Shown piece after piece: positions 215 to 56,419 of a stretch of DNA of 64,000 nt. The position numbers and the translations under genes were made by a program. The stretch lies in the IMG/VR virus record IMGVR_UViG_3300026484_000351, positions 1 to 64,000 of that record; one strand, written 5' to 3'. Below the pieces are notes generated by a model. It did not search any database, was not told where the DNA came from, and saw only the letters and a list, made by a program, of their open reading frames with translations. Origin of the DNA: a virus. The number at the start of each line of letters is the position of its first letter. Position 1 is the first letter of the stretch.

Positions 215-1426
215 ATGAATAAAAATATACCAATAGTAAGAATTTCCAAAAAAGGAGAATTTATTAAAGAATGGCCTTCAGTAAGCCAGGCGATTAGAAA
301 GACAGGTCTTAAAAGTATCGGTGCAGCTTTACAAAGAGTAGACACTTTTTTTGTGGATGGTTCGATGTGGCTATATAAAGACGAATATAAAGATATTGAA
401 GATATTACTATATTTGTTAAGCATTACAAAATGTTAAGATATATAGATAAACGGACTTTTATGAATATAAGACAATATAATAAAGAAGGAGTATTGTTAA
501 ACACTTTCGATACTTTAGAAGAAGCAGTATCAGAAACTGGCTCTAAACAAATCAAGTCAGCCCTTAAAGGATTACAGAAAACTGCTAACGGTTTTGTATG
601 GAAAAGTGATATAGTGACAGACATATACAGAGAAAACATTAGAAACATTCATAATATGGATTTAGATGTTAAAAAAGCTTTTATAGACAAATTTGGAAGT
701 ATAGAAGGTTATTACAGTGCTAAGAAAATTTATGAGAACACTAATTCTTTTGCCCCAAACGGAAATATCTTCGAAACTGAAGCAGGAAAAGAATGGGATG
801 ACAAAGTTCATTTTATTATGAGATGGACTACAGGTAATCACATTAAAAATGCATTCAAGGCTATGAAAATAGATATAACTGACGATAATGTTTCTCAAAA
901 CCTTAAAGAAGGTAATATAGGTACTTATCAGAGAATCGCTAAAGTTTGGTGTGGAGATGGAACTCATGATGATAGAGAACTTGGCTCGGGTAGATGGAGT
1001 GTTAAGCCTAGATTGGCATCTTTTCCTAATACCGGAAATAAGACTATTCCAATTACTAAAAGAGTTGATATCATTAGTAATTGTTCACATCACAATATAG
1101 TATTTTCGACTCTACAGAGGGAAGACAGTTATGCTGTAATTAGTTACATACCTGATGAAGAAGTACTTGGTATTTCTAAGTTACAGAGAATAACTGATTG
1201 GGTGTCACAACGATATTGGCTTCAAGAAGATTTAACCAAAAAGTTATTCGATGAGGTAGCTCTTGTAGCTAAAACAGAATCTGTTTTAGTTGCTTTAATA
1301 AATGTTACTCACGGTTGTGAATCTTTTAGAGGAGCAAAAGCAAACGATGGAGCTTTTACAAGTATGCATTATGGAGGAAAGTTTGAAGATGCGGATATTA
1401 GAAATAGTGTACTAAATAACGCTTAA
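215..1426 (+). CDS. folE: GTP cyclohydrolase I with two N-terminal NUMOD1-like repeats
   Basis: The C-terminal half (about residues 195-400) matches type I GTP cyclohydrolase. It has the zinc ligands C290 and H293 in NCSHHN and C368 in THGCESFRG, plus the YIPDEEVLGISKLQRI segment. The enzyme makes dihydroneopterin triphosphate, the first step to 7-deazaguanines. The N-terminal 140 residues hold two related units of about 50 residues (around 5-55 and 83-132) with the pattern K-x-G...W/F...S/T-x-x-x-A...G...I...L, like NUMOD1 DNA-binding modules of homing nucleases. That makes the protein 403 residues, well above the usual 180-220. The start follows AAAGGAATAGAT. QueD is next, so the pair probably feeds modified guanine for phage DNA. 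Confidence 0.85.
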   Translation: MNKNIPIVRISKKGEFIKEWPSVSQAIRKTGLKSIGAALQRVDTFFVDGSMWLYKDEYKDIEDITIFVKHYKMLRYIDKRTFMNIRQYNKEGVLLNTFDTLEEAVSETGSKQIKSALKGLQKTANGFVWKSDIVTDIYRENIRNIHNMDLDVKKAFIDKFGSIEGYYSAKKIYENTNSFAPNGNIFETEAGKEWDDKVHFIMRWTTGNHIKNAFKAMKIDITDDNVSQNLKEGNIGTYQRIAKVWCGDGTHDDRELGSGRWSVKPRLASFPNTGNKTIPITKRVDIISNCSHHNIVFSTLQREDSYAVISYIPDEEVLGISKLQRITDWVSQRYWLQEDLTKKLFDEVALVAKTESVLVALINVTHGCESFRGAKANDGAFTSMHYGGKFEDADIRNSVLNNA

Positions 1427-1559: not shown

Positions 1560-2222
1560 ATGAAATATATTATAGATAAAAGCTTTAGCTTTTGTTATGG
1601 ACACAGAGTTCATAACCAGCGTTTAAATACAAAGTTTACAGAATCTGGAAATGCTTGTTTGGCATGTAGACATTTACACGGACACGAAGGTTTGGTTAAG
1701 GTTTTCTTAGAAGAAGATACAGATAGTACAAATGTTGCTGATACTGGAATGGTAACAGATTTTAAACACCTTGGTTGGTTTAAAAATTTCTTAGATGATA
1801 CTTTAGACCATAAATTTATTATGGATTTAGAAGATCCATTGCTATATAATGAACTTGTTCATTATTCACATTCTTTTGCATCAGAAGAAGATTATCAAAA
1901 GTCTACTATAGAATTAGTAAGTAAACAAGTTGCAACAGACGGAACAGTAAAAGGGGTAAGGAAAGACAAATTAGTTGCCCATAAAGAAGGTTTCTATACT
2001 TTAGATTTAAATCGTTTAATTAATGATGGAACACCACACGAAAATGCTAACTTTGAGAAATACGAAGGGATAGTTTTAGTAGATTTTGTTCCTACTTCTG
2101 AAAATTTAACAGCTTGGTTAGTTTCAGTAGTACAAGATAAAATGAAAAATTTATCTGGGGTAAGAGTAAAAGCAGTAGAATATTGGGAAACACCAAAAAG
2201 CCATTGTAGAGTAGAGGCATAA
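1560..2222 (+). CDS. queD: 6-carboxy-tetrahydropterin synthase (QueD family)
   Basis: The family's zinc-binding histidines are visible in CYGHRVHNQRL near residue 13 and in CRHLHGHEG near residue 43. The VTDFKHL and LDHKF motifs follow. The enzyme turns dihydroneopterin triphosphate into 6-carboxy-tetrahydropterin on the way to preQ0. At 220 residues it is longer than the usual 120-150, with an extra C-terminal half. It sits after folE and begins after AAAAGGAGATAA. In Campylobacter firehammerviruses such genes feed replacement of dG by an amido-7-deaza-dG; that link is inferred here. Confidence 0.88.
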   Translation: MKYIIDKSFSFCYGHRVHNQRLNTKFTESGNACLACRHLHGHEGLVKVFLEEDTDSTNVADTGMVTDFKHLGWFKNFLDDTLDHKFIMDLEDPLLYNELVHYSHSFASEEDYQKSTIELVSKQVATDGTVKGVRKDKLVAHKEGFYTLDLNRLINDGTPHENANFEKYEGIVLVDFVPTSENLTAWLVSVVQDKMKNLSGVRVKAVEYWETPKSHCRVEA

Positions 2223-2381
2223 ATGAAAGAATGTGCCAACTGCTACTTTGGTGAGAAATGTAATGTAAAAGAAGGATATACGCATTGTAGAATATATGAT
2301 GCTTCTTTTACTGATGATTCCAGATGTACTAAATACGAAAAGGAAGATAATGTACACAAAAAACAGCAAACTTTATTTTGA
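2223..2381 (+). CDS. Small cysteine-rich protein
   Basis: This 52-residue frame starts directly after the queD stop (TAAATG). It holds five cysteines (C4, C7, C13, C22, C35), suggesting a small metal-binding fold. It overlaps the start of the phosphoribosyltransferase gene in another frame. Function unknown; it might deliver or hold zinc for the pterin enzymes, but nothing proves it. Confidence 0.5.
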   Translation: MKECANCYFGEKCNVKEGYTHCRIYDASFTDDSRCTKYEKEDNVHKKQQTLF

Positions 2382-2802
2382 GCCTATTGACTTTGAAAAA
2401 GCAGTGGAAGATTTAGAAACAAAAATTCAACTTCATACCAATGTACACTTAGTAACTTTATACAGGGGTGGATTGCCTCTTGGAGTAAGAATGAGTAATC
2501 AGTTGAATCTTCCACTTAGTATATTGGATTATCAGAGATTGGATGGAGATTCTAAAGAAGTTGCAATGATGAAAGACGCAGGAATTAAAACAACAGATGT
2601 AATATATTTGGTAGATGATATAGCAGATGAAGGAATTACAATTACTGAAGCCATAAAGTTCTTACAAAGTGAATATCCAGAAACAGAAATAGTAATCTAT
2701 ACTATATTTGGCAATAGTGGTAAACATCCTAGAGAATGGCAGTACACTTTTAAACATAGTGCCGAGTGGATATGTTTTGGACCTTGGGAGGGCTATAATT
2801 AG
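2350..2802 (+). CDS. Purine-type phosphoribosyltransferase
   Basis: A type I phosphoribosyltransferase of about 150 residues. The PRPP loop is VIYLVDDIADEGITITEA, and LVTLYRGGLPLG supplies the upstream PPi-loop region as in xanthine/hypoxanthine-guanine enzymes. The ATG at 2350 follows AAAAGGAAGATA and is preferred over the upstream in-frame ATG at 2296, which lies inside the preceding small gene. The position after folE and queD suggests salvage of a guanine analogue or adjustment of purine pools. Its stop overlaps the next GTG. Confidence 0.75.
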   Translation: MYTKNSKLYFEPIDFEKAVEDLETKIQLHTNVHLVTLYRGGLPLGVRMSNQLNLPLSILDYQRLDGDSKEVAMMKDAGIKTTDVIYLVDDIADEGITITEAIKFLQSEYPETEIVIYTIFGNSGKHPREWQYTFKHSAEWICFGPWEGYN

Positions 2803-3047
2803 TGGCAATATTAGGAGGAATACTTTTAATTTGTGCTGCCCTTTTAATGTTTAAGGGAAAAATATATGAAGCAAGTATGCTCTATATTGCTGCAGATATT
2901 GCTTGGATTTACTTAGCTTGGTTATCAAGTAATATGATAGGTGCGGCACTTGTACTTATAGGTGGAATACTTAACTTTGGGGTATTTTTAAAAATGCATA
3001 AAGGAATGTTCGTTAAAGATTTAAAGAAAAATAATTCTTATAAATAG
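2802..3047 (+). CDS. Small membrane protein
   Basis: 81 residues with about three hydrophobic segments (residues 2-17, 24-42, 44-62) and a short basic tail ending KNNSYK. It starts with GTG overlapping the stop of the previous gene (TAGTG), so it is translationally coupled. No family recognised. Confidence 0.6.
   Translation: MAILGGILLICAALLMFKGKIYEASMLYIAADIAWIYLAWLSSNMIGAALVLIGGILNFGVFLKMHKGMFVKDLKKNNSYK
3039..3046 (+). promoter_or_regulatory. T4-type late promoter box
   Basis: TATAAATA, 18 bases before the next start codon. This is the exact T4 late -10 consensus recognised with a gp55-like sigma. Confidence 0.55.
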
Positions 3048-3064
3048 TTTAAAAGGAGTTATTA

Positions 3065-3412
3065 ATGTTTTTAAACGAGCAATTTCAACCTCTTAATGAA
3101 GATTTAAAGTTTGAAGCTTTATCTCAATTAAGAGAAATACAATCCAATCTTGTAGGAATCTCCTTCCTACCAGTTATAGCAATCATGAAACCTGAGAATC
3201 CTTTAAAGAAAGAGGTTTTAGAATTTCAAGATGGGCTAGACGAACTTACAATGAAAATTCAAAACTTTATATCAAGCGCAAAAAATGACATAACTTACGA
3301 TTCTGAAGAAGGTGAAGAACCAGAAGCTGAAGAGCCAGAAGCTGAAGAGCCTACAAGTGACGAAAAAGAAGTAGAAGATTCATCAGAACCTAAAGATAAA
3401 GGAGACAAGTAA
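3065..3412 (+). CDS. Hypothetical protein with acidic repeat tail
   Basis: 115 residues. The N-terminal 80 are mixed helical; the tail is almost all Glu/Pro/Ala/Ser, with EPEAEEP repeated, then KDKGDK. It begins MFLNEQFQPLNED; PLNE followed by an acidic residue could be read as a prohead-protease-like site, but this is weak. It lies behind a TATAAATA box and its stop overlaps the endolysin start, so it is probably a late gene. Confidence 0.6.
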   Translation: MFLNEQFQPLNEDLKFEALSQLREIQSNLVGISFLPVIAIMKPENPLKKEVLEFQDGLDELTMKIQNFISSAKNDITYDSEEGEEPEAEEPEAEEPTSDEKEVEDSSEPKDKGDK

Positions 3413-3879
3413 TGTATGACTTTGGCAACAAATCTAGGGAACAATTTAATACTTTACATATTGATTTACAATTGATCCTTAAAGAAGTTATTAGGATATA
3501 TGATTTTAGTATTCTTGAAGGCATTAGAACAACGGTGAGACAACAGGAGTTATTTAAAAATGGCCGTAGTAAACTTGATGGTATCAATAAAAAGTCTAAA
3601 CATCAGGGCAGAAAAGACAAAGATGGAAATATTGTTTCATTCGCTGTCGACATAATGCCATACAAAAAAAATACAAATGCTTTTGAAGATACCGAAGATG
3701 CAAGAAAAAGATTTTATTTCCTTGCCGGTATAATGTTTTCAGTTACACAAAGATTGTTAAAAAAAGGAAAAATATCTCATAACATAAGGTGGGGTGGTGA
3801 TTGGCAAATGGATATGGTATATAATACTAAATCAGAATTTGTAGATTTACCTCATTTTGAGCTTATAAAAGTTAAATAG
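3412..3879 (+). CDS. Endolysin, L-alanyl-D-glutamate peptidase type (M15)
   Basis: 155 residues with the VanY/M15 layout: LEGIRTTVRQQELF, then zinc ligands H64 (SKHQG), D80 (FAVDI) and H148 (DLPHFEL), and IRWGGDW near 126-131. This matches the T5-type endolysin that cuts the peptide stem of peptidoglycan at lysis. No signal peptide or membrane segment is seen, so a holin would be needed; the membrane protein two genes upstream is one untested candidate. Confidence 0.88.
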   Translation: MYDFGNKSREQFNTLHIDLQLILKEVIRIYDFSILEGIRTTVRQQELFKNGRSKLDGINKKSKHQGRKDKDGNIVSFAVDIMPYKKNTNAFEDTEDARKRFYFLAGIMFSVTQRLLKKGKISHNIRWGGDWQMDMVYNTKSEFVDLPHFELIKVK

Positions 3880-3888
3880 GAGACAAAT

Positions 3889-4443
3889 ATGAAAACATTT
3901 AAAGAAATGGCTCTAAATGAAGCCGCGAAAGAGTTGGATAAATACGCTTTAAGAATAGACGAACAATTAACTTATCTTTATATTAATGATAATGAGTTAC
4001 AAGAAGCACTTGAAATACACAATATGGAAGGAATGGAAGATAAAATTTTATTTGTATTTGGTATTAAACAAGATATGGGATTAAATGTATTTGAGGCTGT
4101 TTATGCTCAGAAGGGATATGGTCCTATTGCTTATAAAACAGCAATGCAAATGATGGGGGAAATGGCCCCTTCTCAGGACAGTAGAATTACTAAATCAGCG
4201 CAAAAAGTTTGGGAAGAATTTTTTAGCGGAAAAGGCTCAAAGGATGTAAATAAAGAATTATTTGGAAGTACAGAAGGTAATTGGCAGAGATATACCTATT
4301 CCCTTAAAAAAGAATTAGACTATGTTACGAATATTAAAAATAATGATAACTTTATTGGTAAAGACCCTTATAACGAAAAAACTAATATGCTTAATGAAGT
4401 AGCAGACGGACTTCTTATTAACAGTATGAGAGCCATATATTAA
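3889..4443 (+). CDS. Candidate head-internal protein with capsid-targeting start
   Basis: 184 residues starting MKTFKEMALNEAAKEL. T4 internal proteins begin MKTYQEFIAEA, which targets them into the prohead and is cut by the gp21 protease after L/I-x-E. Here LNE/A fits that site at residue 11. The rest has no recognised family. It follows the endolysin after AAATAGGAGACAAAT, inside the late block. Packaging in the head is inference from the N terminus and context. Confidence 0.65.
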   Translation: MKTFKEMALNEAAKELDKYALRIDEQLTYLYINDNELQEALEIHNMEGMEDKILFVFGIKQDMGLNVFEAVYAQKGYGPIAYKTAMQMMGEMAPSQDSRITKSAQKVWEEFFSGKGSKDVNKELFGSTEGNWQRYTYSLKKELDYVTNIKNNDNFIGKDPYNEKTNMLNEVADGLLINSMRAIY

Positions 4444-4451
4444 TATAAATA
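4444..4451 (+). promoter_or_regulatory. T4-type late promoter box
   Basis: TATAAATA directly after the preceding stop and 20 bases before the broken capsid-tag gene. Confidence 0.45.
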
Positions 4452-4470
4452 TTCTAAAAGGGAGATGGGT

Positions 4471-4563
4471 ATGGGAACATTTAAAGGATCGATGTAATAA
4501 CTGAAGTTGTGAAAACCGGCACAAAAAATACAGAGTATGCTATTAAAAATAGTGAAGATATAT
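4471..4563 (+). pseudogene. Broken capsid-tag gene
   Basis: ATG GGA ACA TTT AAA opens like the other tagged genes (M-x-T-F-K) after GGGAGATGGGT, but meets TAA TAA after eight codons. A +1 shift gives DVITEVVKTGTKNTEYAIK and then a stop, so the ITE/V step of a capsid-tag can still be read. It lies between two intact tagged genes and looks like a decayed third copy. Confidence 0.4.
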
Positions 4564-4607
4564 AGGAATTTCTTTTGAAGAAGAAACATATAAAAAGGAG
4601 AAGAAAA

Positions 4608-5078
4608 ATGATAACATTTAGTGAATACTTAGTAACAGAAGCAGAAGAGGATAATACTTTTTATGCAAGATCCAATATAGGCAATACAGAAGTACTATAT
4701 CAAGTAGCAATGAGAGCAAAAAGTGCAACTGATTTAGAAAAGGGAATGAAAAAGATGTTCAGTAAATTTCCTGATAGAGAGAAAATTGATTTGAAAAAAG
4801 TTAATTGGAAAAGTATATATACTGAATTAAATGAGGTAGCTCAAGGTACAAGTATACTAATCGAAGGATTTAAAACTAAAGAATACGATGAAATGATGGA
4901 CGGTCTAGATACTGATAAATTTACTAGTGCAATGTATGATTGGTTTCAAGATAATTATCCTGATGCACCAATATATGGTGGAGATGCAACTCCAGATGAA
5001 TTTATTGATTTATTAGACCAAGAAAACGATGGTAAAATGATTAAGAAATTCTATAAAGACATGAAGAAATTTTTATAA
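4608..5078 (+). CDS. Candidate head-internal protein with capsid-targeting start
   Basis: 156 residues. The ATG at 4608 follows AAAAGGAGAAGAAAA and gives MITFSEYLVTEAEEDN, close to the T4 capsid-targeting peptide, with a possible cleavage after VTE. An in-frame ATG at 4575 would add a basic leader that spoils this pattern. The remainder is acidic and rich in aromatic residues (FQDNYPDAPIYGG). No known family; probably carried in the capsid with the DNA. Confidence 0.62.
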   Translation: MITFSEYLVTEAEEDNTFYARSNIGNTEVLYQVAMRAKSATDLEKGMKKMFSKFPDREKIDLKKVNWKSIYTELNEVAQGTSILIEGFKTKEYDEMMDGLDTDKFTSAMYDWFQDNYPDAPIYGGDATPDEFIDLLDQENDGKMIKKFYKDMKKFL

Positions 5079-5095
5079 GAATTGCATAAGTCCTT

Positions 5096-5103
5096 TATAA
5101 ATA
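5096..5103 (+). promoter_or_regulatory. T4-type late promoter box before terminase
   Basis: TATAAATA, 16 bases before the terminase start. AAGTCCTTTA just upstream can pair with the TTAAAGGATACTT that holds the ribosome site, so a small RBS-masking hairpin is possible. The string TTATAAATAAACTTAAAGGAT recurs in large part at 21183. Confidence 0.6.
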
Positions 5104-5119
5104 AACTTAAAGGATACTT

Positions 5120-6142
5120 ATGACAGGTATATTTGATGAGTTAAAAAAAGCAAATAACAACTTAGAAATAGATGATTTGACTAAGGATAAACTTCTTAGT
5201 CAAATTGACACCCCAAAAAATCAAGAAGGCTTCTACTTAGACGCCTTTGAAAATGTAATTTCATTCAACGGAATTAGGCAATTAAAAAAACCCCACACAA
5301 AATTAAAACTTAACAAATATCAACAACAAGAAATTCTAGCATGTCATAATGACTATTTTTATTTTAGAAGAAATTATTGCAAAATTTTAACTAAATCTGG
5401 TATTGGGAGACCCGAACCAAGAGGTTATCAAAAACGGCTTGAAAATGATCTTGTACAAGGTGATGATGTTATAGCATTCTTCCCAAGGCAAAGCGGGAAA
5501 ACAGTTACCATTGCAACATATTTATTATGGCGAGCACTTACTTCTGAAAATATTAATATCGGAATAGCAGCAAATGTTATGTCACTAGCAACAGAAGTCC
5601 TAGATAAAATCAAGAAAATATATATTGAAATGCCTATTTGGTTACAACCTGGATTAATGAGTTGGAATAAAAGAAGTATAGAACTTGATAACGGTTGTAA
5701 AATCATGACAGCTGCAAGTAATTCAGATGCTTTTAGAGGGTACTCATTATCTATAATGTATGTCGATGAAACGGCCTTTATTAGAAACAATCTTTTTGAA
5801 GAATTTATGGATTCAGTTATGCCTGCTATGTCTGCTATTCAGGATAGCCAGGCTATTTTTTCGAGCACTGCTTCGGGTTTGAATCACTTCTACTGGATGG
5901 TAGAAGGCGCGAGAAAAAAAGAAAACGGTTATAATCTTTGTGAAGCAAAATGGCAAGAAGTCCCTCGTTTTCACAAAGATGGTAGACCAAAAACTCCAGA
6001 AGAATTTAAATCAGAACAAGTAGCAAAGAATGGACAGACTCATTTCGAACAAAATTTCGGTAATTGTGTGGGATATGATACACTTATAGATATAGAAAAT
6101 TTAGGAAGTATAAAAATAGGAGATTTATATAATTTGTTGTAA
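5120..6142 (+). CDS. Large terminase N-terminal half fused to a split-intein N fragment
   Basis: Residues 1-315 are the ATPase half of a T4 gp17-type terminase: Walker A PRQSGKT (122-128), Walker B IMYVDET (212-218), coupling motif STASG (249-253) and HFEQNFGN at the junction. Residues 316-340 (CVGYDTLIDIENLG...DLYNLL) are an intein N fragment starting with the nucleophile Cys; the frame then stops. The C half resumes at 7277. The very short 25-residue N fragment is the layout of the atypical AceL-TerL split intein. Protein trans-splicing should rebuild a packaging motor subunit of about 602 residues. Confidence 0.92.
   Translation: MTGIFDELKKANNNLEIDDLTKDKLLSQIDTPKNQEGFYLDAFENVISFNGIRQLKKPHTKLKLNKYQQQEILACHNDYFYFRRNYCKILTKSGIGRPEPRGYQKRLENDLVQGDDVIAFFPRQSGKTVTIATYLLWRALTSENINIGIAANVMSLATEVLDKIKKIYIEMPIWLQPGLMSWNKRSIELDNGCKIMTAASNSDAFRGYSLSIMYVDETAFIRNNLFEEFMDSVMPAMSAIQDSQAIFSSTASGLNHFYWMVEGARKKENGYNLCEAKWQEVPRFHKDGRPKTPEEFKSEQVAKNGQTHFEQNFGNCVGYDTLIDIENLGSIKIGDLYNLL
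6065..6139 (+). other. Split intein, N fragment (25 residues)
   Basis: It begins with Cys after N315 of the terminase and contains only intein block A (C-x-x-x-D-T...I-x-I-G-D-L). It closely follows the known AceL-TerL N fragment, which also starts CV and has 25 residues. Confidence 0.9.
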
Positions 6143-6230
6143 AAATAATTAATATTCTCATTAATTATTTGGATAGGAAAAACATAAGTTATGCTAAATT
6201 TGTAGATATAAAGATGAGAAATGGTAGAAT

Positions 6231-6238
6231 TATAAATA
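6231..6238 (+). promoter_or_regulatory. Possible late promoter for the intein endonuclease
   Basis: TATAAATA lies 44 bases before the endonuclease start in a spacer with no other frame. It could let the nuclease be made late, apart from the terminase. Confidence 0.35.
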
Positions 6239-6281
6239 TAGATAAACCCAAGTGTTAAATTCCAAAACGGAGAAGAAATAA

Positions 6282-7304
6282 ATGAAGATGTGTGTGGATT
6301 GTTCAAAAGAAATTAAAGCCAAAAATAAATCAAATATTAGATGTTATTCTTGTTCAAACAAAATAAGATACAAAGATAAAGAGCATCTTAAAAATATGAA
6401 AGAATCAATTAGAAAATCAAGAAAAAAAGAACTAAATTATGATGGTGATTTGTATGATTTAGATAAGCTTAAGGATGTTTTAAAAAATTTTGATATAAAT
6501 AAATATACAGGCTCAGGGAAAAACAGAACTTTTTATAAAAATGAACCCAAAATAATGTTTTCTTTAAAAAAGCACTCCAACCACCTTGCTTTGAAATATA
6601 GCTATATAAATAGATGTATTTTATCTGATTATACTTTAGTAACAAAGGGTATAGACTTGTGCATTTGTAGTTGCAAGAAAACTTTAAAATGGGATTATTC
6701 TAAAAAATCATTTCAAAAAGCACCAAAATGTTGTAAATTAGGACCTAACTCTATAGAACGCAAAATTTTAGAACATGGTGAAGAAAAGGGTAAAATTATT
6801 TATGAAGAATTTTGTAAAAAAAATGGGGAAGTTAGGAAGGGTTTTTTAAGTTTAGAATACTTTAAAGAGAAATATGATACCCAAGGCCAAGAAGAGTATG
6901 ATAAATATTGGCAATTTAATTTTTCTAAAAGAAAACAAGTAAATTTTAGTAAAATTAGCCAAGAATTGTTTAATAGCATAATCATAAATAAAAAAATAGA
7001 TAAAAGTTATGTTAGATTTGCAACTTTTAATGATAAAGGTGAAGTGAGAATTAATTTTAATAAAAAAGATAAAGAACTGATTGGTGAGTCAAGAGTTTGT
7101 ATGTATTTAGACTTTGTATATAAAGATAAAGTGATCGAATTTGATGGCGCTTATTGGCATAGAAATTCGGAAGAACATGACAAAATAAGAGATGAAATTC
7201 TTAAAAATAAAGGTTATAAAATTTTAAGGATAAAAGAAAAATATTATAAAAAAGATAAAAATAAGGAAATAGAAAAATGTTCAAACTTCTTGATAAACCC
7301 TTAA
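6282..7304 (+). CDS. Free-standing homing endonuclease inside a split intein, Vsr/PD-(D/E)XK-like
   Basis: 340 residues. The N terminus has a zinc finger (CVDC at 4-7, CYSC at 22-25) and a basic linker. A second Cys cluster (CICSCKK...CCK) lies near 127-150. The C-terminal 60 residues show the Vsr-like core: LDFVYKDKVIEFDGAYWH, then R-D-x-x-L-K-N-x-G-Y-K-I-L-R-I. Such nucleases are known between the halves of fractured split-intein genes. It overlaps the C-fragment gene by 28 bases. Its target is expected to be an intein-free terminase gene. Confidence 0.82.
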   Translation: MKMCVDCSKEIKAKNKSNIRCYSCSNKIRYKDKEHLKNMKESIRKSRKKELNYDGDLYDLDKLKDVLKNFDINKYTGSGKNRTFYKNEPKIMFSLKKHSNHLALKYSYINRCILSDYTLVTKGIDLCICSCKKTLKWDYSKKSFQKAPKCCKLGPNSIERKILEHGEEKGKIIYEEFCKKNGEVRKGFLSLEYFKEKYDTQGQEEYDKYWQFNFSKRKQVNFSKISQELFNSIIINKKIDKSYVRFATFNDKGEVRINFNKKDKELIGESRVCMYLDFVYKDKVIEFDGAYWHRNSEEHDKIRDEILKNKGYKILRIKEKYYKKDKNKEIEKCSNFLINP

Positions 7305-7594
7305 AAGTAAAGACACCTAATGGTTATAAAACCTTTACAGGAATACAAAAATATACAAAAAAAACTTATTTGTTAATCACTACTATAGGTGAAATAGAAA
7401 CAGCAGAGCTTCATAGATTTGTAGTAGATGGTAAAGAAATCTTTGCAAAAGATTTAAAGGTTGATGACAGTTTACAAACTGAAACAGGTCACACAAAAAT
7501 AAAAAAAATAATTAAAGGTCCCGTCAAAGATGTTTATGATTTAACTAATGTGGATGGAGAGATATATTATACTAATGGAATATTAAGTCATAAT
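7277..7594 (+). other. Split intein, C fragment (106 residues)
   Basis: It starts with its own ATG and ends LSHN before Thr. Length and motifs match the roughly 104-residue C fragment of AceL-TerL. Confidence 0.9.
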
Positions 7595-8458
7595 ACATTT
7601 TTAGGTTCTTCAGCTACTCTTGTATCGGGAACAGCACTTAAAAATATCACCCCTATGAAAGACGAAGATATAATTTTCAATTCATTATTTGACGGACTTA
7701 AAGTTTATCAAGAAGTAAAAGAAGGCCATAATTATATTTTAACTTCAGACCCTAAACAGGCTGGGATAGATAGTATAGGATTGCATGTTATTGATGTAAC
7801 AAATATTCCTTTTGTGCAAGTAGCATCTGCTAAACTAGATGAAAGTTTTTTAGTTATTCCTAATAGAGTATATGATTTAGGACATTATTATAATGATGCT
7901 TATGTTGTTCAAGAAAATAATATTGAAGCTAATCTTATTAATACTTTGCATGATCAACTGGAATATGAAGGTGAAATTTTTAGAGAAAGGAAAACTTCAG
8001 GTAAAGGTTTTAAGAATATTTGGGGCATCAGAACAACCACAAAAACTAAAAAAATGATGACTTCTTTTCTTAAAAAATTTGTTGAAGATGGTCTTTTAGA
8101 AATAAACGACAAAGCTACACTTGATGAGATGTTTAACTTTATAGAAAAGAAAAATGGAACTTATAGTGCAGAAGAAGGCTATAAAGATGACTTGGTTATG
8201 AGTTTAATGCTTGTGTTTGCACCATTTTTTGATATTAAAAATTGGGATAACTTCAAAGGGTTTAGTTCATTACTTGAGAAACGAGCTGGACAACAAGAAA
8301 AAGAAGAAAAAGAAACTGCTGAGTTTTTAGACTTAGGATTTGCACCTGATGATAATACAACTGTTTCTCCTTTTACTGAGGGTGCATGGGATGAAAATGA
8401 CTTCGGTACGGATGCAATGGAAATGTATCAACAAGATATGGACGATAGAGGTTGGTAA
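7277..8458 (+). CDS. Split-intein C fragment fused to the large terminase nuclease half
   Basis: Residues 1-106 are the intein C fragment: TPNGYKTFTGIQK, block B ELHRFVVDG..DLKVDDSL, and the C-terminal block YTNGILSHN. T107 is the +1 extein residue. Residues 107-393 continue the terminase with TFLGSSATLVSG and the RNase H-like nuclease domain; acidic residues D158 (SDPKQ), E217 (NNIEAN) and D304/D305 (YKDDL) fit the gp17 active site. Thr at +1 differs from Cys in AceL-TerL. Both halves must be made for DNA packaging. Confidence 0.92.
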   Translation: MFKLLDKPLKVKTPNGYKTFTGIQKYTKKTYLLITTIGEIETAELHRFVVDGKEIFAKDLKVDDSLQTETGHTKIKKIIKGPVKDVYDLTNVDGEIYYTNGILSHNTFLGSSATLVSGTALKNITPMKDEDIIFNSLFDGLKVYQEVKEGHNYILTSDPKQAGIDSIGLHVIDVTNIPFVQVASAKLDESFLVIPNRVYDLGHYYNDAYVVQENNIEANLINTLHDQLEYEGEIFRERKTSGKGFKNIWGIRTTTKTKKMMTSFLKKFVEDGLLEINDKATLDEMFNFIEKKNGTYSAEEGYKDDLVMSLMLVFAPFFDIKNWDNFKGFSSLLEKRAGQQEKEEKETAEFLDLGFAPDDNTTVSPFTEGAWDENDFGTDAMEMYQQDMDDRGW

Positions 8459-26358: not shown

Positions 26359-27336
26359 ATGAATATTTTTCAAAAATTATTAGTTAAAATACTACCAGAT
26401 AATATATTAAATAAAAATACAGTCGAGATTAATTCATCTGTAATGTACACTAAAATTGCATTTGATGCTAGTGTTATGAATAATAAAAATCTTGGTATAG
26501 GCATGTATGATATGAGTAATAATGTAAGATTGCGTAAAGGTGGGAAACTTCACAAACAATGTTCAACATTAGGCGAAGCAGAAGCACTTAAATTTACTCT
26601 AAAATATGCAAATGAAAAAGGATTTAAAAACCTTGCATTGTTTACTGATAGTCAAAATTTATCAAGACACGAATTAGGTCAATATACAAAAGATTACAAT
26701 TTTAATAGAGTTGTCTTAACTTGGATACCAAGAGAATTAAATACAGAAGCTGATAAAATGAGTAAAGAAGGACAAAAACTTAATAAAAAAGTGATTTTTG
26801 AAACACCTAATCTAATATATCCTAAAGCGGCAAATGATACAACAGTTAAGATAAGTAAACAATCTTTATCTACTATTAAATCTAGAACAGGATTAAGAAT
26901 TGTTTCAAAAGGAAATACCAAATCAACAAATCAAAAAAGTATTAAAAGTATGTTTAAAGATTATTCTTATAATCAAAAAGCATTATTTATTTCAAGATTG
27001 GCTGTAACAGAACCAGAAAAAGAATTCGGTAGAATGCTTATTCAGGCAACACCTGGAATTTATAATTTTCAACCAAGTAATAAAATGGCACCTTTAATAA
27101 GAATGGCTAAGACAATTATAGAACATAATGAGATGCCGGCTTATATTAAAAAAAGATTCAATAAATTTAAAATGGACAATAATCAAAAAATGGTTATTCA
27201 CAACTCAACAAGTTTTAGAAAAGAATATGAAAGTAGGAAGTTACAAGCACTTAAAAAAGTGAATTATATAGCAAAAAAAGAACCAGTAATGAGAACATCA
27301 GATATGATGGAACTTGTGGCTGCTATAACTGCTTAA
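26359..27336 (+). CDS. RNase H-like domain protein
   Basis: 325 residues. Residues about 30-135 have the RNase HI core: AFDASVMNNKNLGIG (first Asp), GEAEALKFTLKYA (Glu), LFTDSQNL (Asp), then TWIPRELNTEADKMSK (His/Asp region). All four acidic positions are kept, so RNA-strand cutting in hybrids is plausible, perhaps primer removal. The basic C-terminal 190 residues have no known match and may bind nucleic acid. The 3' end meets the leftward HNH gene tail to tail. Confidence 0.72.
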   Translation: MNIFQKLLVKILPDNILNKNTVEINSSVMYTKIAFDASVMNNKNLGIGMYDMSNNVRLRKGGKLHKQCSTLGEAEALKFTLKYANEKGFKNLALFTDSQNLSRHELGQYTKDYNFNRVVLTWIPRELNTEADKMSKEGQKLNKKVIFETPNLIYPKAANDTTVKISKQSLSTIKSRTGLRIVSKGNTKSTNQKSIKSMFKDYSYNQKALFISRLAVTEPEKEFGRMLIQATPGIYNFQPSNKMAPLIRMAKTIIEHNEMPAYIKKRFNKFKMDNNQKMVIHNSTSFRKEYESRKLQALKKVNYIAKKEPVMRTSDMMELVAAITA

Positions 27337-28295
27337 ATTTTTTCTTTTAAATATATTTCTTGTTCTTTTAAAGTTGGGAAATAAAGTTCAGCATACCATC
27401 CCACTTTATGAAAATTACCAAATCTTTTTAAAGTGGCTATTGAAGATTTAGAATTACCTAATGGTTTTTCAAAACTAGACTTGGGCAAAGAAGAACTAAG
27501 TTCATTAAGATCACAATAAGGCATAATTTTAATAGAACTATTGGTGTATAATTTAAACCATTTTCCTTTTTTTAATTTAGTAGATAATATCTTTTTTCTA
27601 TGATTAATTCCTACTTCTTTCTTCCACTCTTCAGAGTTTAAAGTTTCTTTAATTTTTCTTGCTTGTTCTTTACCTATAGTATTTTTCCACTCTTCAGAGT
27701 TTTTGGTGTAAGACATCTTATCTTTCATCTTCTTACCTGTGGTATTTTCCCACTCTATGGAATTTTTGGTTTCTTTAATTTTTCTTGCTTGTTCTTTACC
27801 TATAGTATTTTTCCACTCTTCAGAGTTTTTAATTTCCTTGTGTTTTTCTGATTGAATTTTTCCCTTAGTATTTCTCCACTCTTTTGAATTAAGTAATTTG
27901 CTATGATTTTCACTTCTTTCTTCCATTTTTTTCTGAAATTCTTCAGCTGGTATTAAATCATTTTCACTTATTCTACCATTTTTAATATCTTTATTATTCA
28001 TTGCACAAAATGCACTTAATTGACTATAATTATCTATTGCTTCAGTAAATAAATAATGAGCATAATAATGGTCAGAATATAATAAATGAGTTCCGTTCCA
28101 CGGATTTTCTTTAAGATTACTATATTTTGGGAAACAAGAGTTTGCTTGAGGCAAAATATGATGATATGAAGTTTTACCTTTTATTTTTTCTTGTTGATTA
28201 TTTGTTATACAAAATTGTATATACTGTTTTAATTTTTCTTGTGATTTTATTTCTAAAGTTGAGTTTAAGAACTCTTGTAATATTTTAGTTTTCAT
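27333..28295 (-). CDS. HNH-type homing endonuclease with 21-residue repeats
   Basis: 320 residues. SYHHILPQANS and NPWNGTHLLYSDHYYAHYLF give the HNH-like metal site of phage mobile nucleases. From residue 130 to 230 a basic helical unit (NSEEWKNTIGKEQARKIKET) repeats about five times, like tandem DNA-binding modules; two copies are near-identical over roughly 58 bases at the DNA level. It reads leftward among rightward genes, which marks it as an insertion. A TATAAATA box on its strand lies at 28354-28361. Confidence 0.75.
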   Translation of the reverse strand: MKTKILQEFLNSTLEIKSQEKLKQYIQFCITNNQQEKIKGKTSYHHILPQANSCFPKYSNLKENPWNGTHLLYSDHYYAHYLFTEAIDNYSQLSAFCAMNNKDIKNGRISENDLIPAEEFQKKMEERSENHSKLLNSKEWRNTKGKIQSEKHKEIKNSEEWKNTIGKEQARKIKETKNSIEWENTTGKKMKDKMSYTKNSEEWKNTIGKEQARKIKETLNSEEWKKEVGINHRKKILSTKLKKGKWFKLYTNSSIKIMPYCDLNELSSSLPKSSFEKPLGNSKSSIATLKRFGNFHKVGWYAELYFPTLKEQEIYLKEKI

Positions 28296-45652: not shown

Positions 45653-46996
45653 GTGGAAAAAGCAACAGTAGAGAAATTATATAACGAGCAGGATAGGGAA
45701 TGTATAGATTCCACCTTTGCTAATATGTTTTCTAGTCCAGCATACAGAGAAGATTATGTTTTTTATGCTCATATATTGGCGCAATGTAAAGTAATTATGA
45801 CAAGCGATGTTGATTTAGCAGGAGTAAATTTTACAATTAACAAGTATAACCTTTTTATTAATCCAGAAAGATTTCTTGAATTACCCCTTTTGGAAAGAAT
45901 GTCAGTACTTAAACACGAATCGCTTCATATTCTTTATGGGCATATTTCAAGAAAGGGAGACAGAAACCATAAATTATTCAATAACTCTTCAGATGTTGCA
46001 ATTAACCAGCTTATCACGAGAGAACATTTACCTGAAGGCTGTCTTTACCCTGATACTCTTGAAAAGGCTCTAAAGGAACAAGGTTATAAAATAAAAGTAC
46101 CTGAAATGCTTTCAGCAGAACATTATTATGATTTACTTCCTTCAGAAATAAAAGATAATGCCGAGAATGGACAATGTAATAGTGGAGAAGGAAATCCTCA
46201 AAATTGTGAAAAATGTGGTGGAGCTGGTAAAGAAGAAGACGGAAAACCTTGTAAACATTGTAATGGAACGGGTAAAGAATTCTACAAAGGTTTATTTAAA
46301 GATAATCCACTTGATGACCATAGCAAATGGAATGAGTCAGAAGGAGAATCTGACTTACAACAGGACATCACAAAAAGAATGATTGATAAAAGTATTGAAA
46401 AATCAAGAGGAAACACGCCTTCTCATTTAGAGTATTTTATGGAATTATGGGGGAAAAAAGCACAAATTAGTTGGAAAAAAGTTCTTAGAAATATCGCAAG
46501 TAATAAAAAAGCAAATAAAGTAACAACTATTATGAGAAAATCAAGACGGTTCCCAAATAGACTTGAAATTAGAGGCCATAAGAAAGACAAAATCTTTGAT
46601 ATTGTAGTTATATTAGATGTTTCGGGGAGTATGTCAGATAAAGAAATTATTACTGGACTGGCAGAAATTCGTGAAGTAGCAAAACTTACGGCAAGTACTG
46701 TTAAAATTATTCAAGTTGATACAGAAGTGCATGCAGTAGAGGATTTTACGCCAGGCAAATTTAATAGAAGTGCAGGTGGTGGAACAGAAATGCTACCAGG
46801 ATTTAGATACATTAAGGAGAATAAGGTATCGCATGATGCTATTATTTTAATTACAGATGGATGGATAGAGGATATTTCATACTGGGCAAAAGAAGGTGTA
46901 GCACCAAAATGTCCTTTAATGATTCTTAGCACTGAAGCAGATATTGATGTTTCAGGATACAGAAATTATAGATTTTTCAAACTAGATCAAGCGTAG
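45653..46996 (+). CDS. VWA protein with metallopeptidase-like N-terminal domain
   Basis: 447 residues, GTG start after AAGGAGAAATA. HESLHILYGH (88-97) is an HExxH zinc motif as in DUF2201-type VWA proteins. CEKCGGAGK and CKHCNGTGK near 183-206 form a DnaJ-like zinc knuckle. The C-terminal VWA domain has the MIDAS motif DVSGSMS near 325, with GGTEM and ITDGW. Together with the MoxR gene at 39483 it makes a MoxR/VWA chaperone pair. Possible clients are the PE-tailed proteins encoded around it (inference). Confidence 0.8.
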   Translation: MEKATVEKLYNEQDRECIDSTFANMFSSPAYREDYVFYAHILAQCKVIMTSDVDLAGVNFTINKYNLFINPERFLELPLLERMSVLKHESLHILYGHISRKGDRNHKLFNNSSDVAINQLITREHLPEGCLYPDTLEKALKEQGYKIKVPEMLSAEHYYDLLPSEIKDNAENGQCNSGEGNPQNCEKCGGAGKEEDGKPCKHCNGTGKEFYKGLFKDNPLDDHSKWNESEGESDLQQDITKRMIDKSIEKSRGNTPSHLEYFMELWGKKAQISWKKVLRNIASNKKANKVTTIMRKSRRFPNRLEIRGHKKDKIFDIVVILDVSGSMSDKEIITGLAEIREVAKLTASTVKIIQVDTEVHAVEDFTPGKFNRSAGGGTEMLPGFRYIKENKVSHDAIILITDGWIEDISYWAKEGVAPKCPLMILSTEADIDVSGYRNYRFFKLDQA

Positions 46997-55534: not shown

Positions 55535-56419
55535 ATGAAAATTAAATTTTTAGGAAGTGGCTCTGCATTTACATTAGCAGAAGAAAATTATCAAAGTAAT
55601 ATTTTAATTAGTAAAAATATTGAGAATTTTAAAGTATCTGAACAATGTATAAATGGTGGGCCGACTATTTTAGAAGATAGAAAACAAACAAAAAGACTCC
55701 TTTATGATGCAGGGAGCTCAATAGCAGAAGCACTAAATGCTTATGATTTAAAACCCCAGGACTTGGATTCAATTTATATTTCTCATTTACACGACGATCA
55801 TGCTGGTGGTATTGAATATATTGGCTTCAAAACTTATTTCGAAGTACATCAGTTTGGAGAAACAGTATTTGGATCTATGAAACCTAAATTAATTGGACAT
55901 TCTGATATTCTTAGAGAAGGTTGGGACACTTGCTGGAAAGGCGGACTTCAGTCAATTCAAGGTCAAACAAATTCTTTAGAAACATATTTTGATACAAATT
56001 ATATGCCGAATAATGGCACTTTTGATTTTTATGGTGCAACAATGATGCCTATTCAAACAGTGCATGCGGTTGATAGCCGAAGAATAGTGCCAAGTTATGG
56101 TTTAATGTTTATTGAAAATAATACAAAAGTTTTTATCACTGGAGATACACAATTTGCGCTAAATTTAATGATTACATATTATATTCAAAGTGATATTATA
56201 TTCCATGATTGTGAATTAATATTTGAAGAAAAAGATGGATATAAAAATGGAGTTCATGCTCAATATTGGCAGTTAAATACTCTAAGTAAAGATATTAAGA
56301 AAAAGATGTGGTTATACCATTATTCTCTTAATGGTAGAACTTATGAAGAATGCGAGGATAGAGTTATAACTGATGGTTTTGCAGGTTTAGTAAAAAGAGG
56401 ACAGGAGTTTGAAATATAA
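55535..56419 (+). CDS. Metallo-beta-lactamase-fold hydrolase (RNase Z-like)
   Basis: 294 residues. FLGSGSAFTLAEENYQSN opens the fold; SHLHDDHAGG (around 88-97) is the zinc motif, with FITGDTQFA and FHDCEL as later ligands and a His near 283 (LYHYSLNG). The family includes tRNA 3' nucleases and phosphodiesterases. Past its TAA the same frame goes on to a PE-type tail (next entry). Confidence 0.82.
   Translation: MKIKFLGSGSAFTLAEENYQSNILISKNIENFKVSEQCINGGPTILEDRKQTKRLLYDAGSSIAEALNAYDLKPQDLDSIYISHLHDDHAGGIEYIGFKTYFEVHQFGETVFGSMKPKLIGHSDILREGWDTCWKGGLQSIQGQTNSLETYFDTNYMPNNGTFDFYGATMMPIQTVHAVDSRRIVPSYGLMFIENNTKVFITGDTQFALNLMITYYIQSDIIFHDCELIFEEKDGYKNGVHAQYWQLNTLSKDIKKKMWLYHYSLNGRTYEECEDRVITDGFAGLVKRGQEFEI

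What the first reader, a model, noticed from the sequence alone, without database searches (positions are those of the whole stretch)
5120..8458. Terminase made in two pieces and joined by an atypical split intein that hosts a Vsr-like endonuclease
The ATPase half ends with a 25-residue intein N fragment starting at Cys. The nuclease half starts with a 106-residue C fragment ending LSHN before Thr. A 340-residue zinc-finger plus Vsr/PD-(D/E)XK-like nuclease gene sits between them and overlaps the second half. Fragment lengths and motifs match the AceL-TerL intein known from a metagenome. Here there is a full phage context, a Thr instead of Cys at +1, and a complete fractured-gene cassette. Packaging would depend on trans-splicing.
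Basis: partly seen in the sequence, partly recalled or inferred. Interest (0 to 1): 0.88.

Follow-up and report, generated by a model that had tools for sequence, protein, structure and literature searches.

The report
Phage packaging motor gene split by intein
This phage makes its DNA-packaging enzyme as two proteins that a split intein should stitch together, with a selfish DNA-cutting gene between them; the arrangement is real and very probably works, but it is a further example of a known arrangement that also occurs in other phages.

Summary
A T4-type large terminase (TerL) is encoded in two pieces: ATPase half plus 25-aa IntN (5120-6142), and 106-aa IntC plus nuclease half (7277-8458). 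A 340-aa zinc-ribbon/Vsr-fold endonuclease ORF (6282-7304) lies between. The joined intein is of the AceL/GOS/Cat-TerL type (IntC vs 6DSL CatC E=1e-12; profile 2.6e-22) and has all class-1 splicing residues. Splicing would restore a 602-aa TerL that aligns without a gap at the junction to an uninterrupted relative. The endonuclease is EDxHD-like (I-Bth0305I, 3R3P, is the best sequence and fold match). So this is a fractured gene as described in 2009, and not the first in a phage: PX29, Va1, PSTRCR_127, 92A1, EniLVp02 and K469 are split at nearly the same place, and about 50 endonuclease relatives lie beside an IntC. New here: (i) close relatives hold the same intein contiguous (L001, L102) or split without endonuclease (L016); (ii) this lineage uses an insertion codon one downstream of the usual one, which goes with Thr/Ser at +1; (iii) endonucleases at this site form one clade, apart from those at Walker A. 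Splicing and homing are inferred, not shown.

The parts
5120..6064 (+). TerL N-extein (ATPase): Walker A FFPRQSGKT, Walker B YVDE; 315 aa ending QNFGN
   Evidence: Terminase_6N 1.7e-18, PHROG terminase 1.5e-53; motifs located
6065..6142 (+). IntN, 25 aa CVGYDTLIDIENLGSIKIGDLYNLL plus stop; ends after the first intein helix (S2-type split)
   Evidence: intN HMM 1e-7 and 2e-9 (the window was in the model); aligned with the contiguous inteins of L001/L102 and the split one of L016; helix position in the AF2 model of L001
6143..6281 (+). 139-bp spacer, no gene recognised; ends with a ribosome-binding site (GGAGAAG) for the endonuclease
   Evidence: no intron or RNA-family match; folding z -0.95; possible Hint fossil not supported; RBS
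6282..7304 (+). Free-standing EDxHD/Vsr-like homing-type endonuclease, 340 aa; C4/C7...C21/C24 zinc ribbon, nuclease core D277, E286-F-D-G-x-Y-W-H293, E319
   Evidence: invariant residues over 21 relatives; profile hits 3R3P 1.7e-4 and Vsr 0.06; Foldseek best hit 3R3P prob 1.00; lowest GC (25%) of 27 genes measured
7277..7594 (+). IntC, 106 aa MFKLLDKP...YTNGILSHN; its start overlaps the endonuclease 3' end by 28 bp
   Evidence: CatC 6DSL 1e-12; TIGR01443 above cut-off; intC HMM 7e-30 (the window was in the model)
7595..8458 (+). TerL C-extein (nuclease), 287 aa starting Thr+1 TFLGSS; nuclease residues SDPK, QENN, KDDLVM
   Evidence: Terminase_6C, PHROG terminase; 38-72% identical to 8 relatives; motifs

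Best explanation
A fractured terminase gene. Two precursors are translated from separate ribosome-binding sites: TerL-ATPase-IntN and IntC-TerL-nuclease. The short IntN docks into the large IntC and completes a Hint fold. Cys1 makes an N-S acyl shift, Thr+1 attacks, the last Asn cyclises with help from the penultimate His, and the halves are ligated at FGN-TFLG to give a normal 602-aa T4-type TerL. The ORF between is a homing endonuclease of the EDxHD family. It most likely cuts the intein-free terL allele of co-infecting relatives near this junction, so that repair copies the whole cassette (split intein, endonuclease and the +1 residue) into them. Shown here: sequence, homology, intact motifs, the predicted Hint fold in a contiguous relative, a gap-free restored TerL, and endonuclease lineage tracking the insertion site. 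Inferred: splicing, cutting and homing.
For: Anatomy. Intein: IntC vs CatC E=1e-12; family profile vs CatC 2.6e-22, VidaL 4e-13, gp41-1 2e-11; NCBIfam intein_Cterm. The 131-aa joined intein is 56-61% identical to contiguous inteins (L001, L102) and a split one (L016) at the same site. The L001 model has pLDDT 88.8 and matches VidaL/gp41-1 with TM about 0.8. The spliced TerL aligns gap-free across the junction with the uninterrupted L010 TerL, 44% identity. The same architecture recurs in L021 and L027 and, with a fused endonuclease, in Va1, which argues against artefact. Endonuclease: 3R3P is the best sequence and fold match; about 50 of the family's matches have an IntC within 250 bp. Site-C endonucleases form one clade (92/86; 0 of 500 shuffles as clustered), with window+Va1 at 99/90. 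+1 is Thr/Ser in all four intein-bearing alleles of the lineage but E, K, N, S or T in intein-free ones, as expected if +1 travels with the intein.
Against: No splicing or cleavage has been measured. Whether AceL-like inteins accept Thr+1 is untested. The endonuclease model is good only in its C-terminal part (mean pLDDT 65). No mixed intein-plus and intein-minus population has been seen, so homing is not directly documented. The L016 state (split, no endonuclease) shows that the split can persist without the nuclease.
Confidence: 0.88

Rival explanations
1. The two halves work as a non-covalent complex and the intein is a relic or only a docking device (a 'gene in pieces').
For: Related phages do break TerL at another place (site D) with no intein: L001, L015, L018.
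Against: All splicing residues are intact in the window (Cys1, block-B His, penultimate His, terminal Asn, Thr+1) and in the three site relatives, with +1 restricted to S/T in the four intein-bearing alleles. A docking-only relic would be expected to lose Cys1 or Asn.
Confidence: 0.07
2. The endonuclease ORF is not a homing enzyme for this site but a passenger, or a domesticated nuclease (for example one acting against competing phages).
For: L016 keeps a split intein with no endonuclease. Other phages carry different enzymes in the same position (GIY-YIG in PX29; short GIY-YIG-like ORFs in L154, PSTRCR_127 and 92A1). No cleavage data.
Against: Site-C endonucleases form a clade separate from site-A ones, core residues are invariant, and the family sits next to IntC in about 50 places.
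Confidence: 0.12
3. Assembly artefact, or RNA-level removal (intron) of the region between the halves.
For: None found beyond the stop codons and the ORF between.
Against: No intron match in Rfam. Independent contigs and an isolate genome have the same order. Each ORF has its own ribosome-binding site. An intron would not explain IntN and IntC.
Confidence: 0.02

Closest known systems
AceL-TerL / GOS-TerL atypical split inteins and the Cat consensus (PDB 6DSL)
   Same: Same host protein and same split after helix 1 (S2); IntN 25 aa in AceL; large IntC starting MFKL in CatC; class-1 residues; IntC homologous to CatC (PMC11766414, PMC13014065)
   Different: Inserted one codon downstream of the usual Cys codon (GN|TF rather than |C-x-F), +1 Thr rather than Cys. 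Its clade (window, L001, L016, L102) is well supported, and joining it with the other TerL site-C inteins and CatC is rejected at p-AU 0.02
Vibrio phage Va1 terL (MK387337)
   Same: Fractured TerL at the neighbouring codon with an endonuclease of the same clade (34% identity)
   Different: Va1's endonuclease is fused in frame to IntC (one long ORF); the window's is a separate overlapping ORF; +1 Cys in Va1
Aeromonas phage PX29 gene 17A/17B (GU396103) and Providencia/Serratia relatives
   Same: Fractured TerL with split intein, so annotated in GenBank for PX29
   Different: GIY-YIG endonuclease, fused to IntC in PX29; insertion two codons upstream of the window's
Fractured genes and EDxHD endonucleases (Dassa et al. 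2009; I-Bth0305I, PDB 3R3P)
   Same: Order half-gene / free-standing Vsr-like endonuclease / half-gene; nuclease core profile and fold match 3R3P
   Different: No difference in kind found; the 2009 paper was not held and is known here through citations in PMC11766414 and PMC10448857 and from memory

Membership tests
Atypically split (S2) class-1 intein of AceL/GOS-TerL type | Cys (or Ser) at position 1, block-B His, penultimate His plus terminal Asn | tested here: met
   CVGYDT..., AELH, LSHN
Atypically split (S2) class-1 intein of AceL/GOS-TerL type | Short IntN (15-37 aa) ending after helix alpha-1 | tested here: met
   25 aa; helix 24-30 of the L001 model corresponds to the IntN end (PMC13014065)
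Atypically split (S2) class-1 intein of AceL/GOS-TerL type | Sequence homology to CatC/AceL IntC | tested here: met
   6DSL_B 1e-12 single sequence, 2.6e-22 profile
The AceL/GOS-TerL insertion allele itself | Insertion codon and Cys+1 as in AceL/GOS (identity of the allele, not of the class) | tested here: not met
   Thr+1, one codon downstream; separate clade. So same type of intein, different insertion allele
Atypically split (S2) class-1 intein of AceL/GOS-TerL type | Trans-splicing activity | not testable with these tools
   needs expression of both halves
Fractured gene with free-standing homing endonuclease | Two half-genes with IntN/IntC and an endonuclease ORF between | tested here: met
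EDxHD (I-Bth0305I) homing endonuclease | Vsr-like nuclease core with conserved acidic/His residues | tested here: met
   D277, E286, H293, E319 invariant over 21 relatives; 3R3P best sequence and fold match; the exact assignment of the letters E-D-x-H-D to residues was not verified
EDxHD (I-Bth0305I) homing endonuclease | Site-specific cutting of the intein-free allele | not testable with these tools
   indirect only: clade follows insertion site
T4-type large terminase | Walker A/B ATPase plus RNase H-like nuclease acidic residues | tested here: met
   PRQSGKT, YVDE, SDPK, QENN, KDDLVM in the joined product

The most novel reading that the evidence does not exclude
One TerL intein has changed between contiguous, split-without-endonuclease and split-with-endonuclease forms at least twice within a single phage lineage (window, L016, L102, L001), so fracture is a reversible state tied to gain and loss of the endonuclease. 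In this lineage TerL is a general landing pad: up to three intein sites plus a further gene break with no intein, so that some phages build TerL from three polypeptides.
Probability: 0.45. Interest if true: 0.6.

Novelty: new member of a known kind. Interest (0 to 1): 0.42.

Why it matters
It gives a natural series (intein-free, contiguous, split without endonuclease, split with endonuclease) of one intein in one essential gene, which makes the origin of fractured genes testable with real alleles. It also adds an atypical split intein with a 25-aa IntN and Thr+1, an uncommon nucleophile pair that would be useful for peptide ligation if active.

Tried and rejected
Spacer 6143-6281 as a fossil of a Hint segment (frame +2 NISYAKFVDIKMRNGRIINIDKPKC): intC HMM gave only 4 bits and did not align the suspected block, so not supported. 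Intron or RNA splicing: no Rfam match. Regulatory structure in the spacer: z -0.95. Promoter scan: 23 found vs 20 expected, uninformative. Single-sequence endonuclease scan of viral contigs found no relatives; the alignment-based scan gave 80 loci. A second TerL in the record: none. Other inteins of this type or Vsr-like endonucleases in the 96.8-kb record: none found. The idea that the window intein is the AceL-site intein slid by one codon is disfavoured: holding all site-C inteins together is rejected at p-AU 0.02, though the tree has only 105 columns. The Dassa 2009 paper could not be read.

Full report
What is there. Three ORFs lie in order on the + strand, each with a plausible ribosome-binding site. 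5120-6142 encodes 315 aa of T4-type TerL ATPase followed by 25 aa starting at Cys. 6282-7304 encodes a 340-aa nuclease. 7277-8458 encodes 106 aa ending LSHN followed by 287 aa of TerL nuclease domain starting at Thr. Family searches agree: Terminase_6N 1.7e-18, Terminase_6C 8e-5, PHROG terminases, NCBIfam intein_Cterm above its cut-off, and DUF559/MTES_1575 for the middle ORF. The gene after it is a T4-like neck protein, so the context is a myovirus-type head-neck cluster in a 96,768-base virus record. These are the only TerL pieces found in that record.

The intein. IntC alone finds the PDB chain CatC (6DSL, the consensus of AceL/GOS-TerL inteins) at 1e-12. A profile of the family finds CatC at 2.6e-22, VidaL at 4e-13 and gp41-1 at 2e-11. 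Cys1, the block-B His, His-Asn and a +1 hydroxyl residue are all present. The contiguous relative in L001 (58% identical) gives a Hint fold at pLDDT 88.8 whose best PDB matches are VidaL and gp41-1. The window split falls just after the first helix, the S2 position reported for AceL and GOS TerL (PMC13014065). Splicing would give 602 aa that align without a gap across the junction to the uninterrupted TerL of L010 (44% identity). The ATPase and nuclease motifs are present.

Three states of one intein. At the same codon, L001 (67% identical TerL-C) and L102 carry the intein uninterrupted with Ser+1. L016 carries it split by only 29 bp, with a strong ribosome-binding site and no endonuclease. 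L011, L013, L014, L015, L017 and L018 lack it at this codon. The four inteins form one clade (99/94 to 100/98), with split and contiguous members intermingled, so at least two changes of state are needed on that tree. The tree rests on about 100 columns, so this is suggestive only.

Insertion point and +1 residue. Counting back from the conserved Phe of F-x-G-S/T, the +1 residue is three before it in PX29, PSTRCR_127 and 92A1. It is two before in Va1, EniLVp02, K469, L021, L024, L049 and L154. All of these have Cys+1. It is one before in the window lineage, where +1 is Thr or Ser. Holding all these site-C inteins and CatC together as one clade is rejected at p-AU 0.02. So the Thr does not look like a decayed Cys; it comes with a different insertion codon, and this region was probably entered more than once. 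Cys1/Thr+1 is a known pairing among inteins (PMC11766414). Intein-free relatives have E, K, N, S or T at that position, so the +1 residue most likely travels with the intein.

The endonuclease. It is homologous to the corresponding part of Va1 (34%), to L021 (46% over the nuclease half) and to many viral-contig ORFs. Across 21 relatives D277, E286, F287, G289, Y291, W292, H293 and E319 are invariant. The profile's best PDB match is I-Bth0305I (3R3P, 1.7e-4), with Vsr next among nucleases (0.06). The model's best Foldseek match is again 3R3P (prob 1.00, TM 0.66 by target, E 0.011). The N-terminal half of the model is of low confidence. About 50 of the family's matches are followed within 250 bp by an IntC, mostly at the TerL Walker A site. 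On the tree, endonucleases at the window's site (window, Va1, L021, L024) form one clade (92/86, no shuffle of 500 as clustered), apart from the site-A ones. Several of these rows have long branches, so the clade deserves a recheck with more members. It is what site-specific homing predicts. The ORF is also the most AT-rich of 27 genes measured (25% vs 27-33% GC).

How it most likely works. Two precursors, trans-splicing to a normal terminase, and an endonuclease that spreads the cassette into empty terL alleles. Sequence relations, motifs, predicted fold and site-tracking are shown. Splicing and cutting are inferred.

What is known already. Fractured genes with split inteins and this nuclease family were described in 2009 (Dassa et al., not held; cited in PMC11766414 and PMC10448857; its content is from memory). 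AceL-TerL and GOS-TerL have been characterised (PMC11766414). PX29 17A/17B is annotated as such in GenBank. Va1, PSTRCR_127, 92A1, EniLVp02 and K469 have a split TerL intein in the same region, not named as inteins in the annotation seen. The window is therefore a new member of a known kind, with a distinct insertion allele and an informative set of relatives.

Noticed in passing
L001 5580-5780; L018 1800-1960; L015 4100-5200; contiguous in L102 (ORF 2997-5840): TerL is broken into two cistrons inside a roughly 60-aa non-intein insertion in the linker region of the ATPase half (site D). In L018 the cistrons overlap as TAATG, in L001 they overlap by about 20 bp, and in L015 an endonuclease-like ORF (4180-5130) sits between. 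No IntC is recognisable, so the pieces would have to work unspliced (a gene in pieces).
   Followed up: partly
L015 667-6222: TerL spread over three polypeptides: contiguous intein at Walker A, split intein at Walker B with a 528-aa endonuclease-like ORF (2041-3627) between, and the site-D break with another ORF.
   Followed up: partly
L016 6001-9080: One TerL with three inteins: contiguous at Walker A and at Walker B, split without endonuclease at the window's site.
   Followed up: yes
L014 7016-7970: Split intein at Walker B with what looks like a frame-broken GIY-YIG-like remnant between the halves, as if an endonuclease were decaying while the split persists.
   Followed up: no
L021-L100: Very common fractured TerL at the Walker A site (HN|T/S...YLLW) with Vsr-like endonucleases in viral contigs; L046, L080 and L099 carry the pair with other downstream sequences, perhaps other genes.
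   Followed up: partly
L009 1541-1786 and L141/L156 4425-4727: Campylobacter phage F336 and related contigs have an IntC at a Walker B-type site (SHN|CAFIDKW) just upstream of the annotated TerL; CP220 records annotate a Hint domain there.
   Followed up: no
window 215-1426: GTP cyclohydrolase I (1.9e-23) with a long N-terminal extension bearing weak NUMOD-like repeats, followed by a 6-pyruvoyl tetrahydropterin synthase homologue at 1560-2222 (possible 7-deazaguanine DNA modification).
   Followed up: no
window 55535-56419: Metallo-beta-lactamase-fold protein matching the anti-Pycsar protein Apyc1 above Pfam's cut-off (52.4 vs 50 bits).
   Followed up: no
window 27333-28295 (-) and 45653-46996 (+): Two further free-standing HNH/homing-endonuclease-like genes by PHROG match.
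   Followed up: no
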